From: Bacillota bacterium
Lineage (GTDB): Bacteria; Bacillota; Negativicutes; Sporomusales; Sporomusaceae
Reading direction: 5' to 3'
DNA length: 64,000 bases
Assembly: GCA_017889705.1 (NCBI GenBank)
Contig: JAGGAB010000019.1
Coordinates: forward strand, 1-64,000
Part shown: piece by piece, positions 23,908 to 62,197 of the stretch
How positions within the stretch are numbered: the first letter of the stretch is position 1
Layout of the letters: every line of letters starts with the position of its first letter
The notes under the pieces: generated by a model
Databases searched by the model: none
What the model was told of the DNA's origin: nothing
Seen by the model: only the letters and a program-made list of their open reading frames with translations
Made by a program: the position numbers and the translations under genes

Positions 23908-23995
23908 TTTTAAGGGCAACCTGGCAATCATAGACCAATAGTCCTTAGACCCATAGCTTTGCGTCCTTACTTTTCAGTAAGTTTGCCACATATTT
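23908..23995 (-). ncRNA. c-di-GMP-I riboswitch (GEMM-I)
   Basis: Read on the minus strand the RNA has GGCAAACTTAC, a GAAAAG loop, GTAAGGACGCAAAGCTA, GGGTCTAAGG, then ATGATTGCCAGGTTGCC. These are the conserved GEMM-I landmarks (GCAAAC, ACGCAAAGC, GGNCUAA, GCCAGGUUGCC). The base row just before CAAAC reads GTGG, so the ligand-contact G of this class should be checked by alignment. Confidence 0.9.
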
Positions 23996-23999
23996 TTTT

Positions 24000-54901: not shown

Positions 54902-54923
54902 GTCAATGAGAGGAGGCTTCGCT

Positions 54924-55271
54924 ATGAGGAAAAAAACCAGACACCAGATGTATAAGCCTGAAAAAAGTAAAGTCATGAAAATGAAGGACGAATTTCAAGA
55001 TATGGAAGATATGTGCGATATAGATGATATGGATGAGGACATGGATGAAATGGAAGATATGGAGAATATGGCTCCCCAAAAGCACTATATGGAAAGCATG
55101 AAGATGCATCACCATATGAGTGAAATGGGGGCGATTTTTCCTGAATGTATCCAATTAGCCCATTCCTACGTGCCTTGGCAAACCTATGAAAAAGCCTTTA
55201 CCCCACCGGAAGCGCTTATGAAAGGTACCCTGTTTCCCGAACTTTGGGGTGTTTATAGAATTCCTAAATAG
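54924..55271 (+). CDS. cotJA: Spore-coat protein CotJA with Met/Asp-rich extension
   Basis: The C-terminal 45 residues (LAHSYVPWQTYEKAFTPPEALMKGTLFPELWGVYR) are the CotJA family core. The N-terminal 70 residues are unusually rich in Met, Asp, Glu and His (DMEDMCDIDDMDEDMDEMEDM, then KMHHHM), roughly twice the family's usual length and likely metal-binding. ATG 54924 follows GAGAGGAGG. It is the first gene of a three-gene cotJ operon, 22 bases before cotJB. Confidence 0.9.
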   Translation: MRKKTRHQMYKPEKSKVMKMKDEFQDMEDMCDIDDMDEDMDEMEDMENMAPQKHYMESMKMHHHMSEMGAIFPECIQLAHSYVPWQTYEKAFTPPEALMKGTLFPELWGVYRIPK

Positions 55272-55293
55272 ATTGTAATGGAGGCGTCAATAA

Positions 55294-55551
55294 GTGAAAC
55301 ATGAAAAACAGACAGCGCTTCTAAAAAAGGTGCAGGAGATGGAATTTGTCGCTATTGAGCTTAATCTCTATCTTGACACCCATCCGTGCGACCAGGACGC
55401 GCTGCATGATTTTAACTGCGCAGTTGAGATGCTGAAAAAATATAAAGAAAAATATGAATCTGAATATGGACCACTATTAAACTTTGGTTTTGGTGGAATG
55501 TCCGGAGAGCCTTGGCAATGGGTGCAAGGACCTTGGCCCTGGGAATTATAA
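55294..55551 (+). CDS. cotJB: Spore-coat protein CotJB
   Basis: The 85-residue protein has the CotJB core, LLKKVQEMEFVAIELNLYLDTHPCDQDALHDFN, ending in a Trp/Pro-rich tail (GEPWQWVQGPWPWEL). GTG 55294 follows GGAGGCG. CotJB lies in the spore inner coat and joins CotJC in one operon. Confidence 0.93.
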   Translation: MKHEKQTALLKKVQEMEFVAIELNLYLDTHPCDQDALHDFNCAVEMLKKYKEKYESEYGPLLNFGFGGMSGEPWQWVQGPWPWEL

Positions 55552-55592
55552 AATAAGACTCCGGGAAACTCTTCAATAAAGGAGCAGTGAAT

Positions 55593-56192
55593 ATGTGGAT
55601 ATATGAAAAAAAACTTGAGCATCCCGTGCGTGTTACCTGCCCGGACGTAAAATTCGCCAAAATGGTAATAACTCAGTATGGCGGTCCTGACGGCGAACTG
55701 GGTGCTTCGCTCAGATACTTAAACCAACGCTATAGTATGCCGACCGATAATGCAAAAGCGTTACTTACAGATATTGGTACTGAAGAACTGGCTCATATGG
55801 AAATGATTGCTGCCTTGGTATATAAACTGGTTGACGGTGCCAGTTGTGAAGATTTCAAAGCCGCAGGCTGGGAAGGACAGTATGTCCAGCATAATCATGG
55901 ACTGTTTTGGACAGATGCCAACGGTGTGCCCTGGTGTGCCTCCTATATTGCCTGTCTTGGTGACCCGATTGCCGATTTAACCGAAGATATGGCGGCCGAG
56001 CAAAAAGCACGTGTAACTTACGAACATTTAATTGCATGTACCGAAGACCCCTGTGTTAAAGATACCCTACGGTTTTTATGGCAGCGGGAAGTCATTCATT
56101 TCCAACGGTTTGGTGAGGCACTTAATGAGATTCAGGAATGGATGTGCAAGTGTAAGCATGTTTGGCATGGACATAAGTGCGGGTGTGAGTAA
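55593..56192 (+). CDS. cotJC: Spore-coat manganese-catalase-like protein CotJC
   Basis: The 199-residue Mn-catalase family protein has the metal-binding Glu/His helices (MVITQYGGPDGELGASLRYL, DIGTEELAHMEMIAALV, AEQKARVTYEHLI, QREVIHFQRFGEAL). It probably protects the spore from peroxide or stores Mn. ATG 55593 is chosen since AAAGGAG lies 9 bases upstream. The C-terminal tail CKCKHVWHGHKCGC is Cys/His-rich and unusual. Confidence 0.95.
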   Translation: MWIYEKKLEHPVRVTCPDVKFAKMVITQYGGPDGELGASLRYLNQRYSMPTDNAKALLTDIGTEELAHMEMIAALVYKLVDGASCEDFKAAGWEGQYVQHNHGLFWTDANGVPWCASYIACLGDPIADLTEDMAAEQKARVTYEHLIACTEDPCVKDTLRFLWQREVIHFQRFGEALNEIQEWMCKCKHVWHGHKCGCE

Positions 56193-56480
56193 CGGCAGAT
56201 ATGTTTAGGGGTTTGAATTGCGCTCAATAGTAAGTTAGTAAATTGAGCCCCGATAAGATATTTCATTATCCATTATCGGGGTTCGGTTTGGCGAATGGGT
56301 AATATCTTATTAGAAAAAGCTATTTGCAGTTAAACAAGGTGGATATTAGCCCAGAAATAAGAATGACGACGAACACCGACTACGCTCCTGAGAGTAGAGA
56401 CTGTAGTCTTGCATTTTTATTGACGGATAGAGTAACTTAATGTAAGATTATAACTAAGATACCATTTTGTAGATGATTAA
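56193..56480. other. Intergenic region upstream of the c-di-GMP riboswitch
   Basis: It holds a hairpin near 56245-56284 (GCCCCGATAA against TTATCGGGGTTC), the likely cotJ terminator, and then AT-rich sequence with the riboswitch promoter. No ORF seen. Confidence 0.5.
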
Positions 56481-56567
56481 ATGCATAGGGCAAACTTATC
56501 GAAAGATAAGTTTGCAAAACTATGGGTCTTAGGACAGATAGGTCTACGACTGCCAAGCTGCAATTCG
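56481..56567 (+). ncRNA. c-di-GMP-I riboswitch (GEMM-I)
   Basis: ATAGGGCAAACTTATC, a GAAA tetraloop, GATAAGTTTGCAAAACTATGG, GGTCTTAGG and ACTGCCAAGCTGC match the GEMM-I order (P2 with GAAA loop, then the GGNCUAA-like and GCCANGYUGC elements). The usual GGACGCAAAGC reads GTTTGCAAAAC here, a mild variant. The G preceding GGCAAAC is present. It controls the histidine-kinase operon at 56712. Confidence 0.88.
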
Positions 56568-56585
56568 GTAAAGGTCTTGTATATG

Positions 56586-56628
56586 TTGGCATCAGTCTAT
56601 TAATTGACTGGTGCCATCTATTTTTTTC
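56586..56628 (+). terminator. Intrinsic terminator, expression platform of the c-di-GMP riboswitch
   Basis: GGCATCAGTC against GACTGGTGCC with a TATTAATT loop, then ATCTATTTTTTT. It ends 84 bases before the kinase start. Confidence 0.88.
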
Positions 56629-56711
56629 AATAAAGTATTGGACCAATAATATAATTATTCATAAAAAATAAGTGTTGACCCCGTAATCTATAAGCAAAGA
56701 AGTGATGGTTT

Positions 56712-58394
56712 ATGGCAATTGGATATTACCAGCCTCTGGGGAATATTCCTTTTTATATATTTGCGACAGCGGCAATACTGGTGTTGGCCACTTATATCTG
56801 GCAGTTTAGAGAAAGCCCTGGAGCCAAAATACAGGTATATGCCTTGCTTTGTAAAGTAACCTGGCTGTTATCCCATGTGTTAATTGCTTATAGTCAAACC
56901 TTCTCTGGAAAAATATTTTGGATCTACGTGGGATATTTATCGGGATTGCTTTTACCCTATTGCTGGTATATTTTTGTTTTAGAAATCAGTAACCAAAAAA
57001 ATCGGATAACCGCCATTATAGAAGTGGGAATAATGGCAATTATCGGTGTTGAGTTTTTGGCGGCTATTTGTAATCCCTGGCATATATTTTGCCGGGATGT
57101 TTTTTTTGATGGTTCTGTCGTAAATTTAGTTGCGGGGCCATTGGTGACGATAAACCAAATAAGCAGCTACTTGATATGTATTCTGCCATTGGGGTTAAGT
57201 GTTCGCTGGATTTGGCAGTCTTCAGGGCTGCGCCGTAAACAGGCACTATTGTTTACGTTTGCTGGTTTAATTACTCTGTTAGGAACAATATTTTTGGTCT
57301 TTTTGCCCCAAGTAAGCTGGATGCATCCACTTCCTTTGTTTTCCATATTATCCGCGCTCATCATGACTTGGGGCTTTTACCGCTGGCATGTATATGACAT
57401 TTTGCCAATAGCCATGGATACGGTGACGAAGACTATGATAGATGGTTTCCTTATTGTAGATGAAGATGGCTATATTATCGAAATCAATTCGGTTGCGAAG
57501 CGTGTTCTTGCCGGATTGCCGGTTTTTATTGGTGGCAAATTTACAGATGTGATTAATACCTGGCCGGCATTAGGTAATCTTAGTGAGGTTGAGCGATTTT
57601 CTATCATTGAGGTTATCCGGGAATATAACAATAAAACGTATTATTATCAAGTAGAGCAAATCTTATTGCTACCGAAAAGGAATATCTTAGGCAAGATACT
57701 TCTCTTTGAAGATATTACTCAGCAAAAGCAAGATGAGAGTAAATCAATGGAACAGCAACGAGCCTTGGCGGTCTTGACTGAAAGGAATCGTCTCAGCCGG
57801 GAAATTCATGACAGCCAAGGGCAAATTCCCGGCTATGTAAAAGTACAAACCCAAATTATTGAACTGTTTTTACAAAAGGGACAACTGACCGAGGCCGTTG
57901 ACCAATTAGAGCAACTAGGCGAAGTGGCGGATGTTGCGCTTAATGAAGTGCGGGAATCTATTACTGGTCTTAAACTAAATTCGGCAGAATGGAACTTTTA
58001 TAAAACTTTGCAGGAATGGTTGAAGCATTTTCAGCGAATCTCGGGTATTGCTGTTATCTATAACGAACCCAATTATATACCGCCAAGTGCAATGTTGCCA
58101 GGTTCTGAGGTTCAGCTATTACGTATGATTCAAGAGGTTTTGACAAATGCCAGAAAGCATTCGGGTGCTAGTCAAGTAAAAGTCGTACTAGCTTTTTTGG
58201 ATAATTGGATACAGGTAACTGTAACCGATAATGGATGTGGTTTTGACGTTGAAGATCATAGTCGACTTGCCAAGTTTGGCCTTACTATTTTGCAGGAGCG
58301 TGCTGCGGAAATTGGTGGTACTTTAAAGATAAGATCGGGATTAGCGCAAGGAACAATGGTTAGTATAGGAGTTCCGTTGGTACAGTCCGTCTAA
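56712..58394 (+). CDS. 7TM sensor histidine kinase with PAS (HisKA_3 type)
   Basis: The 560-residue protein has seven N-terminal helices (to about residue 225) of the histidine-kinase 7TM type, a PAS domain (MIDGFLIVDEDGYIIEINSVAKRVL), then HisKA_3 with phospho-acceptor His366 in LSREIHDSQ. The HATPase has N-box IQEVLTNARKHSGAS and G-box VTDNGCGFDVEDHSRLAKFGLTILQERAAEIGG. It belongs to the NarX-type kinases that signal to NarL-type regulators, one of which closes the operon. Expression depends on the c-di-GMP riboswitch. Confidence 0.92.
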   Translation: MAIGYYQPLGNIPFYIFATAAILVLATYIWQFRESPGAKIQVYALLCKVTWLLSHVLIAYSQTFSGKIFWIYVGYLSGLLLPYCWYIFVLEISNQKNRITAIIEVGIMAIIGVEFLAAICNPWHIFCRDVFFDGSVVNLVAGPLVTINQISSYLICILPLGLSVRWIWQSSGLRRKQALLFTFAGLITLLGTIFLVFLPQVSWMHPLPLFSILSALIMTWGFYRWHVYDILPIAMDTVTKTMIDGFLIVDEDGYIIEINSVAKRVLAGLPVFIGGKFTDVINTWPALGNLSEVERFSIIEVIREYNNKTYYYQVEQILLLPKRNILGKILLFEDITQQKQDESKSMEQQRALAVLTERNRLSREIHDSQGQIPGYVKVQTQIIELFLQKGQLTEAVDQLEQLGEVADVALNEVRESITGLKLNSAEWNFYKTLQEWLKHFQRISGIAVIYNEPNYIPPSAMLPGSEVQLLRMIQEVLTNARKHSGASQVKVVLAFLDNWIQVTVTDNGCGFDVEDHSRLAKFGLTILQERAAEIGGTLKIRSGLAQGTMVSIGVPLVQSV

Positions 58395-58448
58395 TGTGTT
58401 AAATTGCTGTAAGATCAATAGTTGCATGGGGGTAAGAGGAGGGGGATT

Positions 58449-60161
58449 ATGGTCTATGGTATTTTGTATTCGGATATACCGTCTTATATATTTGTTTTAG
58501 TAGTGATGTTGATTTTAGCTGTTTATGTCTGGCAATATAAAAAAACCGCAGGAGCGAAGCCGCACGTGTATGGCTTGGTGTGTAAAGCAACATGGTTACT
58601 CTGTATAGTGCTGGCGCTTTATTACCGAGAGGCAGCATTAAGAGTGTTTTGGATATATATGTCATGCTTTTTTTTAATTATGATGCCTTATATTTGGTAT
58701 ATATTTATTTTGGAAATTAGCCAACAAAAAGAAAGTAGTGCGATGAGCTGGGGTGCTGTGGGTATTACCGTCTTTAATTTATTGGCTGTTGTCTCCAATC
58801 CCTGGCACCGGCTATGCTGGCAGGAAATTTTAGTCACTGACAGAGGTATAGTTATATATATGGGACCACTGATGGTTGTGGTTTGGATCAGCAGTTATTT
58901 GATATGTACTTTAATCCTGTTATTAAGTGTACGCTGGATAGTAATAGCCACCGGTGTGCGGCGAAAACAGGCTTTATGGATTTCTATTGCCAATATATCT
59001 TTGGCAATAGGAGGCATATTAGAAATTTTCAAAACGGATACAATTTCAGCGTTTCTAGTATCTCTTCTAGTATCTGCAGTATTTGTAAATTGGGCGTTTT
59101 ATCGTTGGCATGTATATGATATTTTGCCCTTTGCAAAAAATGCCGTTGTACGCAATATATGTGATGCTGTGTTAGTTGTAGACGAAGTAGGTAACATTGT
59201 CAAAATAAATACTGCTGCCGAAAGAGTGCTCAGTGGTTTACCGTGCCTTGTTGGTACTAATTTTGAAAAATTAACTACTATGTGGCCGGCATTACAGCAG
59301 CTCGACAAAAGTTTAAACCAGCAGACCCTAGCAGTGACGAGAAAGTTTCTTGGAAAAACTCATTATTTTCAACTGCGGAAAACCACATTGCAAAAAGAAG
59401 GGCAGGTGAGGGGTATGGTCATATTAATCAAAGAGATTACCTTGCAAAAGCAAAGGCAGGAAAAAATACTGGAACATCAAAAGGCGGTAGCTATTTTGAC
59501 TGAACGGGATCGAATTAGCCGTAAGGTTCAAAATAGTCAGGGGAAGTTCCTGCATGATGTAAAAAAACAGGTGCAGGGAATAAAATTACTGGTAGAAAAA
59601 GGACAATTGGCAGAAAGCTGTGAGCAGCTTAAAAATTTAAGTGATATGGCAGATGACGCATTTGCCGATGTACGGGAAGTGATTAGCAGTTTGAAAGTAT
59701 CCGCTGAAAACTGGAACTTTTTTAAAAACCTGGAAGAGTGGTTGTATGGCTTCCAAAAGAGCACAGGCATTGTAGTAACTTACGCAAAACTGGAGGTTAA
59801 TCGCGAACAATGGATTTTGCCTGCTGCTGAGGTGCAATTACTATGGATAATACAGGAAGCTTTAAGTATAATTACAAAACAGCTAAAAGTGATTCATTTG
59901 GGCATGACTTTTATTAATTCTTCCAGATGGTTGAATGTAACTACTATTGCTGAATGCGGGGATTTTGGCCTGGAAGCTAGGGCTAGTCACTTTGATAAGT
60001 TTGGCTTGTACATTATTGAGGAGCGGGCAAAGGAAATCGGAGGGAGTTGCACACTGAGGGCGGCTCAGACACAGAAAGTAATATTTAATGTAAGAATACC
60101 TCTTGCAAAGGCACAGGGGGAAATTCCATCAATGTTGTTGGCGGATACTGATTTTTGTTGA
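58449..60161 (+). CDS. Degenerate 7TM histidine-kinase paralogue (pseudokinase)
   Basis: The 570-residue protein has the same 7TM, PAS, HisKA_3 and HATPase order as the preceding gene, clearly a tandem duplicate. But the acceptor His is Gln361 in RISRKVQNSQ, the N-box is QEALSIITKQLKV without Asn, and the G1 Asp is lost (IAECGDFGLEA). It should be unable to autophosphorylate and probably acts as an allosteric or sensor partner of its neighbour. AGAGGAGGGGG precedes ATG 58449. Confidence 0.88.
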   Translation: MVYGILYSDIPSYIFVLVVMLILAVYVWQYKKTAGAKPHVYGLVCKATWLLCIVLALYYREAALRVFWIYMSCFFLIMMPYIWYIFILEISQQKESSAMSWGAVGITVFNLLAVVSNPWHRLCWQEILVTDRGIVIYMGPLMVVVWISSYLICTLILLLSVRWIVIATGVRRKQALWISIANISLAIGGILEIFKTDTISAFLVSLLVSAVFVNWAFYRWHVYDILPFAKNAVVRNICDAVLVVDEVGNIVKINTAAERVLSGLPCLVGTNFEKLTTMWPALQQLDKSLNQQTLAVTRKFLGKTHYFQLRKTTLQKEGQVRGMVILIKEITLQKQRQEKILEHQKAVAILTERDRISRKVQNSQGKFLHDVKKQVQGIKLLVEKGQLAESCEQLKNLSDMADDAFADVREVISSLKVSAENWNFFKNLEEWLYGFQKSTGIVVTYAKLEVNREQWILPAAEVQLLWIIQEALSIITKQLKVIHLGMTFINSSRWLNVTTIAECGDFGLEARASHFDKFGLYIIEERAKEIGGSCTLRAAQTQKVIFNVRIPLAKAQGEIPSMLLADTDFC

Positions 60162-60339
60162 AAAAAAGCAAAAAACCTATCTTTTTGGCTAGTAGATTTT
60201 TATTTTTCCGCTGGTATAATTAAAAATGCATATTAAAGGTTTTACTATAATTATACTAATATGATGGATTTTTGGAAAAAAGAAATATGTATTAATTTAA
60301 ATCTTTCGCGGAGAAATGATAGCAGACGAGGTGGTTTAT

Positions 60340-61398
60340 ATGGGAAGAACACTCCCCTTGGAGGAAATCAATCCAGGCATGGTCACCGCGGTTCCGGTCT
60401 TAACAGCTAATCAAAAGGTTGTATTGCAGGAAAACATTGAATTGACAAGTCATATGATTAACTTGCTGCATAGGTGGAACATTAAGGAAATTTGCATTAA
60501 GGGAGAAAGACACAGAAAACATTCAGAGTCGATAGGTAATCCTTCTCATGACGATTTTATTAAACCTTACGGTCAAGCGGTCCAAGAGGCTAAAAAGACA
60601 TTTGAATATATGAGGAGAAGTGAAAAAGTACCCTACTCTGATTTTTATAAATTGGCGTATGGTACTTTATATGAATTAACATGTCAAAAAAATGTGCTTT
60701 CCAATTTGTACCGTTTAAAGGCTCCTGTTGATTATATGTATCTTCATGCAGTCGATGTCGGTGTTATTGCTGGATTAATCGGAAGATGGTGTGCTTTGGG
60801 GGAAGCGGATATCAAGAAACTAATTCTGGCTGGTGTTATGCATGATGTTGGCAAATCGCAAAATCCGCTTTATATCTTAGAAAGGCCAGAGTTGCCTACC
60901 ACGGAACAAATGGATGCTCTTAAACTGCATCCCACTTACGGGTATTATATGGTTAAGAGTATTCCTGGTATTGAACTGGAAGTTCAACAGGCTATTTTGC
61001 AGCATCATGAGCGGGAAAATGGCTCTGGCTATCCTCTTGGTTCTACTGCTGACGGAATTCATGCTTTTGCTAAAATTCTTGCTATTGCCGATGTGTATGA
61101 TGCTATGACATCAAATCGCGTCTATAAAAGCAGTGTTACGCCGTTTGTTGCATTAGATACCTTAGCCAGTGAAATCGTTACTCACTTTGAACGAAAATAC
61201 TGTGAGATATTTATTGGAAACAGCCTGAAAACGTTAATTAACGCTACTGTTTTATTAAGTGATCACTCCCAAGCAAAAGTGGTGAGCTTTAACAGCTTTC
61301 TTTCTGTCAAACCGATTGTGCAGAAAAACGATGGTCAATTAATAGATTTGAATGAGCCGGGTACTGTTTCTATTGTGGAAATTGTAAATTTCCCCTAA
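60340..61398 (+). CDS. HD-GYP domain phosphodiesterase
   Basis: A 352-residue protein. N-terminal about 120 residues are a small DUF-like region (LPLEEINPGMVTAVPVLTANQKVVLQ), followed by an HD-GYP domain: VMHDVGKSQNPLYILERPELPTT, ALKLHPTYGYYMVKSIPG, and HHERENGSGYPLG, where the usual Asp is Asn. It is expected to hydrolyse c-di-GMP. It lies in the riboswitch-controlled transcript, a direct link from enzyme to the signal. ATG 60340 follows GACGAGGTGG. Confidence 0.9.
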   Translation: MGRTLPLEEINPGMVTAVPVLTANQKVVLQENIELTSHMINLLHRWNIKEICIKGERHRKHSESIGNPSHDDFIKPYGQAVQEAKKTFEYMRRSEKVPYSDFYKLAYGTLYELTCQKNVLSNLYRLKAPVDYMYLHAVDVGVIAGLIGRWCALGEADIKKLILAGVMHDVGKSQNPLYILERPELPTTEQMDALKLHPTYGYYMVKSIPGIELEVQQAILQHHERENGSGYPLGSTADGIHAFAKILAIADVYDAMTSNRVYKSSVTPFVALDTLASEIVTHFERKYCEIFIGNSLKTLINATVLLSDHSQAKVVSFNSFLSVKPIVQKNDGQLIDLNEPGTVSIVEIVNFP

Positions 61399-61469
61399 TG
61401 CTAGTGAACTTGGGAGAAATTAATTACTGAGGGACTCCACAGCAAGGGTGTGGTTTAGGAGGGGAGTGA

Positions 61470-62138
61470 ATGAGAGTATTACTGGCAGACGATCATTGCT
61501 TATTTAGCAGTGGTTTGCAAAAACTACTCGAGGCTAGTGGCATTACGGTGGTTGACACAGTAAAAAACGGATTTGCTGCTATTGAATCTGTACGAAATTA
61601 TCAACCAGACGTGGTATTGATGGATCTTGAGATGCCAGAATGTGACGGTCTAAAAGCTACGCAATTTATTAAAACGGAATTTCCTGCAATAAAGATTGTA
61701 ATACTGACAATGAATGTTGACGAGCGTGTATTCAGTGCGATAAAAAACGGAGCGTCAGGGTATTTATTAAAAAACCTCGAAATCGGGGAGTTGTTGACTT
61801 TGTTGGAAAGTTTAGAGCAAGGTCAAACCATTTTTTCTCCCGAGCTAGCCAACTGGCTGTTGCAAGAGTTTGATACTAACGATATAGGTGAAGCCTTCGA
61901 ACTTGCGGAAACTGTAAGTCATGTACATAGCCCTCTGACATCACGACAGAAAGAAATTTTACTGCATATTGCATCAGGAAAGACCTATAAGGAAGTAGGG
62001 GCTATTTGCAATATTACTGTTGCTACGGTGAAATTTCATATCAATGAGATTCTTGAACGGTTGCATTTAAAAAATCGGGCACAGGCTATCGCATATGCAA
62101 TACAGGCCAATTTGGTCAGCGACACAAATAAAAAGTGA
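61470..62138 (+). CDS. NarL/FixJ-family response regulator
   Basis: The 222-residue protein has a receiver with acidic pair ADDHCLF, phospho-acceptor Asp in VVLMDLEMP, Thr in VILTMN and Lys in LLKNLEIG, then a LuxR-type HTH (LTSRQKEILLHIASGKTYKEVGAICNITVATVKFHINEIL). It is the likely partner of the 7TM kinase three genes upstream. GGAGGGGAG precedes ATG 61470. Confidence 0.94.
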   Translation: MRVLLADDHCLFSSGLQKLLEASGITVVDTVKNGFAAIESVRNYQPDVVLMDLEMPECDGLKATQFIKTEFPAIKIVILTMNVDERVFSAIKNGASGYLLKNLEIGELLTLLESLEQGQTIFSPELANWLLQEFDTNDIGEAFELAETVSHVHSPLTSRQKEILLHIASGKTYKEVGAICNITVATVKFHINEILERLHLKNRAQAIAYAIQANLVSDTNKK

Positions 62139-62152
62139 CCTGGTAAGAAGAT

Positions 62153-62197
62153 AATAAGCTGGTTTGCAGAAATATCTGTGAATCAGCTTATTTTTTA
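62153..62197 (+). terminator. Intrinsic terminator of the c-di-GMP circuit operon
   Basis: AATAAGCTG against CAGCTTATT with an inner stem, followed by TTTTTTATTTT. Confidence 0.88.

What the first reader, a model, noticed from the sequence alone, without database searches (positions are those of the whole stretch)
56481..62138. Self-contained c-di-GMP circuit: riboswitch, kinase, pseudokinase, HD-GYP phosphodiesterase, regulator
A GEMM-I aptamer with terminator heads a same-strand series of a 7TM kinase, its degenerate twin, an HD-GYP enzyme that should destroy c-di-GMP, and a NarL regulator. An RNA sensor of c-di-GMP driving a gene that removes it would close a feedback loop, with a two-component output. 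I know of no described system with exactly this composition.
Basis: partly seen in the sequence, partly recalled or inferred. Interest (0 to 1): 0.8.

Follow-up and report, generated by a model that had tools for sequence, protein, structure and literature searches.

The report
Altered c-di-GMP riboswitch before pseudokinase operon

Summary
The circuit reading weakens in four ways. (1) The aptamer has GAC->UUU at Vc2 positions 42-44 and CUAA->CUUA in the tetraloop receptor; C44 and CUAA are intact in the other 12 GEMM-I of this genome. The UUU complements AAA 23-25, giving a perfect 11-bp hairpin, as one template-switch mutation would. Disrupting the C44 contact abolished binding in Cd1 (PMC9262584), so this sensor is probably dead or retuned. 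(2) The platform is OFF-type: c-di-GMP would repress its own destroyer, which is positive feedback. (3) In 19 of 20 fetched loci of the kinase family the regulator gene follows the kinase gene directly; in none was a twin, an HD-GYP between them, or a GEMM-I in front seen. (4) A perfect extended -10 lies before the HD-GYP gene. The twin is a tandem paralogue (support 98/97) that lost six catalytic residues while its 7TM part stayed similar; it most likely acts on the intact kinase as a heterodimer. New variant of known kinds; moderate interest.

The parts
56420..56448 (+). candidate sigma-70-type promoter of the leader (TTGACG-17-TAAGAT)
   Evidence: consensus match only, scan not above chance overall
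56479..56565 (+). GEMM-I-derived aptamer, core altered
   Evidence: RF01051 67.9 bits; loss of C44 and CTAA->CTTA found only here among 13 own-genome copies
56490..56515 (+). P2 turned into a perfect 11-bp hairpin with GAAA loop (GCAAACTTATC/GATAAGTTTGC)
   Evidence: -14.0 versus -6.9 kcal/mol for the GAC form found in L001
56511..56513 (+). TTT in place of the conserved GAC (Vc2 42-44); exact complement of AAA 23-25
56587..56625 (+). intrinsic terminator; its 5' arm can instead pair with the 3' strand of the aptamer (antiterminator), OFF-type platform
56712..58394 (+). 7TM-PAS-HisKA_3-HATPase histidine kinase (KIN), catalytic residues present
   Evidence: PAS below Pfam cut-off
58449..60161 (+). 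pseudokinase twin (PSK), ATG 58449 behind AGGAGG; phospho-acceptor His, N-box and G1-box residues lost
   Evidence: start from reading (the ORF list gives TTG 58422)
60212..60220 (+). candidate extended -10 (TGGTATAAT) ahead of the HD-GYP gene
60316..61398 (+). HD-GYP phosphodiesterase; a start at 60340 (behind GAGGTGG) is an alternative
   Evidence: alternative start from reading
61470..62138 (+). NarL/FixJ-type response regulator, acidic pair DD at 7-8 and MDLEMP at 51-56 of the receiver
62153..62192 (+). terminator-like hairpin after the regulator gene

Best explanation
This is an ordinary 7TM-kinase/NarL-type regulator pair that was expanded in one lineage: the kinase gene was duplicated in tandem, the second copy lost its catalytic residues, and an unrelated HD-GYP gene came to lie between the kinases and the regulator. 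The leader is related to OFF-type c-di-GMP-I riboswitches of the same genome, nearest to one ahead of an HD-GYP gene. Its aptamer has since been changed, most likely by one template-switch event that copied the AAA arm of P2 onto the GAC arm. This closed the internal loop that docks P2 to P3, so c-di-GMP probably no longer controls the terminator and the operon is read through at a more or less fixed level. The pseudokinase keeps its 7TM sensor and most likely heterodimerises with the kinase, adding a second input to, or damping, phosphorylation of the regulator. The HD-GYP enzyme lowers c-di-GMP, driven by the operon, its own promoter, or both. Shown: parts, altered residues, paralogy, the order not found elsewhere, possible antiterminator pairing. 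Inferred: loss of binding, mutational route, OFF logic in the cell, heterodimer, enzyme activity.
For: Own genome has 13 GEMM-I; C44 is kept in 12 of 13 and CTAA in 12 of 13, the window copy being the exception in both, and both are kept in 3 copies from relatives. Pattern counts in 380 class genomes: intact GACGCAAA form in 70 genomes, 124 copies in the 28 genomes of the order (my sum of the table); the TTTGCAAA form gave 21 matches in 20 genomes, of which only the window's lies in a GEMM-I, the other 20 having no Rfam match in their loci. Role of C44-G83 and of the tetraloop: PMC3764141 (passages); disrupting them abolished binding in Cd1: PMC9262584 (section 17, and a passage of section 20). 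Closest own leader by blastn is L001, 76.7% over 150 nt including the terminator, ahead of a 57-aa ORF and an HD-GYP gene. In prefix folds the terminator 5' arm pairs with aptamer positions about 66-78 in window, L001 and L003 before its 3' arm is made; at some lengths L001 uses positions 79-86 instead. KIN and PSK are sisters, support 98/97. H366, D367, N479, D506, G508, G510 are kept in 20 of 21 aligned members and lost only in PSK; 7TM identity KIN-PSK is 43% (KIN-Lucifera 45%), HATPase 34% (KIN with five others 53-55%). Regulator gene directly after the kinase gene in 19 of 20 loci.
Against: The aptamer still scores far above the cut-off, and three own-genome copies score lower (67.8, 66.0 and 47.1 bits). 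G20 and A47-A49, and by my reading C92, are kept, and U44 could still wobble-pair with G83. Cd1 tests used other mutations (C81A, A24-26U), not GAC->UUU. Template switching is inferred from three adjacent changes; nine other positions of the aptamer core also differ from L001. The full-length MFE of the leader favours the terminator, so read-through depends on folding during transcription; a dead aptamer could also leave the operon mostly off. PSK was flagged for odd letter make-up in the tree and has the longer branch. An assembly error cannot be excluded (154 contigs, 8.78% contamination). No expression or biochemical data.
Confidence: 0.55

Rival explanations
1. Working c-di-GMP OFF switch with lower affinity: the kept contact residues still bind c-di-GMP, and high c-di-GMP shuts off kinases, HD-GYP and regulator, a positive feedback that locks the high-c-di-GMP state.
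For: 67.9 bits and kept G20, A47-A49; OFF-type pairing; paralogous leader L001 with intact core ahead of HD-GYP.
Against: C44 and the receptor CTAA changed only here; disrupting these contacts abolished binding in Cd1; P2 loop closed with a gain of about 7 kcal/mol.
Confidence: 0.25
2. Retuned riboswitch: the changed aptamer is a natural variant that senses another ligand.
For: The leader keeps a promoter-like site, an aptamer-like fold and the platform, and ligand-contact residues.
Against: The changes hit docking, not base-recognition positions; no second example of this exact form in 380 class genomes.
Confidence: 0.08
3. Decaying operon: pseudokinase and aptamer are both wreckage on the way to loss.
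For: Both have lost conserved core residues; the arrangement was not found in relatives.
Against: PSK is a full 570-aa open frame on an end branch of 1.06 changes per site with a 7TM part still 43% identical to KIN; KIN, HD-GYP and RR keep their signature residues.
Confidence: 0.15
4. The reader's self-contained homeostatic c-di-GMP feedback circuit.
For: Composition and strand.
Against: OFF-type logic, altered aptamer, order not found elsewhere, possible own promoter for HD-GYP.
Confidence: 0.07

Closest known systems
c-di-GMP-I (GEMM-I) riboswitch, OFF type, Clostridioides difficile Cd1 (PMC9262584; passages and section 17 read)
   Same: aptamer model match, terminator platform with the aptamer 3' strand as antiterminator partner
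   Different: C44-equivalent and tetraloop receptor changed, P2 internal loop closed
CmrRST, C. difficile (PMC8844915; passages read)
   Same: two-component genes behind a c-di-GMP riboswitch
   Different: class II, positively acting riboswitch followed by a phase switch; one kinase and two regulators; no phosphodiesterase in the operon name or in the passages I saw
FasBCA three-component system, group A Streptococcus (PMC12675982; passages read)
   Same: two membrane kinase-like proteins and one regulator; heterodimer with unequal roles
   Different: six predicted TM segments, another family (recalled); no riboswitch or HD-GYP in the passages I saw
ChrS pseudokinase / HrrS heterodimer, Corynebacterium glutamicum (PMC9491836; abstract and outline read)
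   Same: catalytically dead kinase acting with an active paralogue
   Different: arose by frameshift in laboratory evolution, not as a natural tandem copy
GEMM-I before an HD-GYP gene at G000:C64:22883 (L001)
   Same: related leader, OFF-type pairing, HD-GYP gene downstream
   Different: aptamer core intact; a 57-aa ORF follows the leader, no kinase gene seen in the 1.5 kb downstream

Membership tests
c-di-GMP-I riboswitch (RF01051) | covariance-model match above gathering score | tested here: met
   67.9 bits vs 35
c-di-GMP-I riboswitch (RF01051) | ligand-contact residues G20, A47, A48, C92 | tested here: met
   read from the alignment; list from PMC3764141; the placing of C92 on the model is my own reading
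c-di-GMP-I riboswitch (RF01051) | G42 and C44 in the P2 internal loop (C44-G83 docking pair) | tested here: not met
   UUU in the window; C44 present in the other 12 of 13 own copies, G42 in 11 of 13
c-di-GMP-I riboswitch (RF01051) | GNRA loop of P2 with its receptor in P3 (CUAA in relatives) | tested here: inconclusive
   GAAA kept, receptor CUUA; CUAA in the other 12 of 13 own copies
c-di-GMP-I riboswitch (RF01051) | binds c-di-GMP | not testable with these tools
   needs in-line probing
HisKA_3 histidine kinase with 7TM sensor (KIN) | H-box His, N box, G boxes | tested here: met
HisKA_3 histidine kinase with 7TM sensor (PSK) | H-box His, N box, G1 box | tested here: not met
   H366Q, D367N, N479I, D506A, G508C, G510D by KIN numbering
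HD-GYP phosphodiesterase | H...HDxGK...H...HH...GYP...D | tested here: met
   H144, H176-D177, K180, H205, H230-H231, GYP, D259, aligned to 4mcw
HD-GYP phosphodiesterase | hydrolyses c-di-GMP | not testable with these tools
   needs an enzyme assay
NarL/FixJ response regulator | receiver with phospho-acceptor Asp and LuxR-type HTH | tested here: met
   Response_reg and GerE above cut-off; MDLEMP at 51-56

The most novel reading that the evidence does not exclude
A natural riboswitch was rewired in one step: a template switch within its own P2 stem perfected the hairpin, cut the sensor loose from c-di-GMP and gave a two-kinase, HD-GYP-bearing signalling operon a leader that is ligand-free or answers to something else, turning an operon controlled by c-di-GMP into one that controls c-di-GMP.
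Probability: 0.2. Interest if true: 0.65.

Novelty: new variant of a known kind. Interest (0 to 1): 0.4.

Why it matters
Template switching has been proposed to create and maintain RNA stems (PMC8794818, abstract); a case where the same kind of event breaks a riboswitch, because its function needs an imperfect stem, would be an instructive counterpart and can be tested in vitro with two short RNAs. The natural pseudokinase twin beside its intact sister also offers a clean pair for the heterodimer model of kinase regulation.

Tried and rejected
Conserved-circuit idea: rejected after 20 loci of the kinase family, 13 further loci of which 11 lie around HD-GYP homologues, and 38 loci of genome contigs (at least four of these, L130, L131, L132 and L134, are the same places as loci already counted) showed none with the window's order. 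Two come part of the way and are told here: L083 has a distant HD-GYP (26% identity) about 4 kb 3' of the regulator on the same strand, and L167 (Chloroploca) has a distant HD-GYP (25%) divergent from an ORF that matches both kinase and regulator. L155 holds two kinase-regulator pairs in a row, L160 and L162 two pairs apart. Records of the window's own or a very near genome may be left out, as its answer says.

A conserved GEMM-I in front of the kinase: Rfam scans of the 20 kinase loci found GEMM-I in 3 (L074, L084, L087), each 3' of kinase and regulator, heading other genes.

A recurrent variant class of the aptamer: pattern search of 380 genomes (21 matches, and 7 for the reversed control pattern by my count, so chance matches are expected) plus Rfam on the other 20 found none. 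The patterns are narrow and would miss other changes at 42-44.

A promoter before the regulator gene: none above 6 of 12 matches. Rfam was run on only 4 of the 38 contig loci (L130, L131, L133, L138). Four rows of alignment A1 (L003, L004, L005, L012) were on the wrong strand; the counts used come, where they are turned round. A 57-aa ORF after L001 matched no Pfam family. No structure prediction was run.
Full report
What is there. A c-di-GMP-I match (56479-56565, 67.9 bits) stands behind a promoter-like site and before a terminator; then come a 7TM-PAS-HisKA_3-HATPase kinase, a twin, an HD-GYP protein and a NarL-type regulator on the same strand. The gaps are 54, 154 and 71 nt. The genome holds 13 c-di-GMP-I matches over the cut-off; the second one in the window (23912-23997, minus) heads a dCache-HAMP gene. 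G008, of the same genus as the window's genome, has contigs of the same lengths as Sporomusa silvacetica, so the genome is probably a Sporomusa.

The aptamer is not a normal one. In the other 12 copies of this genome, and in 3 from relatives, the residue equivalent to Vc2 C44 and the receptor CUAA are kept; the window copy alone has UUU in place of GAC (42-44) and CUUA. Less strictly, G42 is also A in L013 and A43 is G in L012. PMC3764141 (passages read) lists G42 and C44 among the highly conserved residues and describes the C44-G83 pair as mediating the parallel arrangement of P2 and P3. PMC9262584 (passages, section 17, and a passage of section 20) reports that disrupting the equivalent G79-C35 contact (by C81A), or the tetraloop contact (A24-26U), left Cd1 unable to bind. 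The UUU is the exact complement of AAA 23-25, so the internal loop becomes part of a perfect 11-bp hairpin, -14.0 instead of -6.9 kcal/mol. If three given bases change at random, all three become complementary in 1 of 27 cases (my calculation, equal rates assumed). Template switching within an imperfect hairpin makes just this kind of change (PMC8794818, abstract and outline). I therefore infer one event for these three bases; the core differs from L001 at nine more positions, mostly single (model positions 11-84), which need other events.

How rare it is. In 380 genomes of the class the intact pattern occurs in 70 genomes (124 copies in the 28 genomes of the order, summed by hand from the table), while the TTT pattern gave 21 matches in 20 genomes; the other 20 matches have no Rfam match in their loci, leaving only the window. 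By score alone the window copy is not the worst of its genome: three copies score lower.

Logic of the leader. The nearest own-genome leader by blastn is L001 (76.7% over 150 nt, terminator included), which precedes a 57-aa ORF and, further on, an HD-GYP gene. Folding growing prefixes, the 5' arm of the terminator pairs with the 3' strand of the aptamer (about positions 66-78) before its own 3' arm is made, in the window, L001 and L003; L001 uses 79-86 at some lengths. This is the OFF arrangement of Cd1. Under a working switch c-di-GMP would shut off an enzyme that removes it, which is positive feedback. The MFE of the whole leader holds the terminator, so what a dead aptamer does depends on folding during transcription; I think fixed read-through more likely than fixed silence, without proof.

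The kinases. KIN and PSK are sisters in a 25-row tree (98/97) with end branches of 0.56 and 1.06; the program flagged PSK's letter make-up as unlike the rest. Six catalytic residues are kept in 20 of 21 aligned members and lost only in PSK; the four further rows of the tree, looked at for the H box alone, keep its His and Asp. The 7TM part of PSK is about as close to KIN (43%) as KIN is to its Lucifera relative (45%), but the ATPase part is not (34% against 53-55% for KIN with five others). This fits a retained sensor on a dead catalytic body. Heterodimers with unequal partners are described for FasB/FasC (PMC12675982, passages) and ChrS/HrrS (PMC9491836, abstract and outline).

Gene order. 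Of 20 loci fetched around kinase relatives (L074-L093, including one paralogue of this genome, L081, and one split kinase, L092), 19 have the regulator gene directly after the kinase gene and one (L089) has it about 1.3 kb upstream; none has a second kinase gene or an HD-GYP gene between. Of 38 loci in named genomes, the best are Lucifera butyrica and Sporomusa silvacetica; none shows the window's order. Two loci have a distant HD-GYP nearby in other arrangements (L083; L167). The 11 HD-GYP loci fetched (41-49% identity, one of them from this genome) show no kinase or regulator of this family within the stretches held.

Transcription. The 154-nt gap before HD-GYP holds TGGTATAAT, a perfect extended -10 with a weak -35 (TAGATT, spacing 16); 300 of 20,000 shuffles of the gap hold such a site, and the window has 7 on both strands together. 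The stricter scan did not list it. It is a candidate only.

The enzyme. HD-GYP residues align with 4mcw: H144, H176-D177, K180, H205, H230-H231, GYP and D259 (positions). The glutamate that 4mcw has shortly before the first His has no counterpart in that alignment; its role as a metal ligand is recalled, not from a call.

Literature. Searches showed, among the 10 to 15 rows listed for each, no paper on this gene set; this is weak evidence of absence.

Verdict. Observation confirmed. The self-contained circuit is not supported as conserved or as homeostatic. The unexpected result is the altered aptamer.

Noticed in passing
L008, L011, L013 (G000:C64:41667, C146:17655, C96:7809): These three own-genome GEMM-I copies have A at the G20 position, the change known from cGAMP-sensing GEMM-I RNAs (recalled); L008 heads a STAS-like ORF (by eye) and a REC-GGDEF gene.
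   Followed up: no
window 23912-23997 (-): Second GEMM-I of the window (77.7 bits, core intact) ahead of a dCache-HAMP gene.
   Followed up: partly
window 54906-56192: The kinase series lies just 3' of genes that look like the spore-coat cotJ cluster (by eye, no family search).
   Followed up: no
L075, L085 (tmRNA); L088, L091 (tRNA-Sec): Kinase-regulator pairs of this family lie within about 1.3 kb of tmRNA or selenocysteine-tRNA genes in four of 20 loci, which may mark insertion sites.
   Followed up: no
L074:9954-10041 (Lucifera butyrica): A GEMM-I with intact core starts about 120 nt after the regulator gene and heads a surface-protein-like gene and a UDP-sugar dehydrogenase-like gene (by eye).
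   Followed up: partly
L092 (G007:C1): A kinase of this family is split over two overlapping frames; only described.
   Followed up: no
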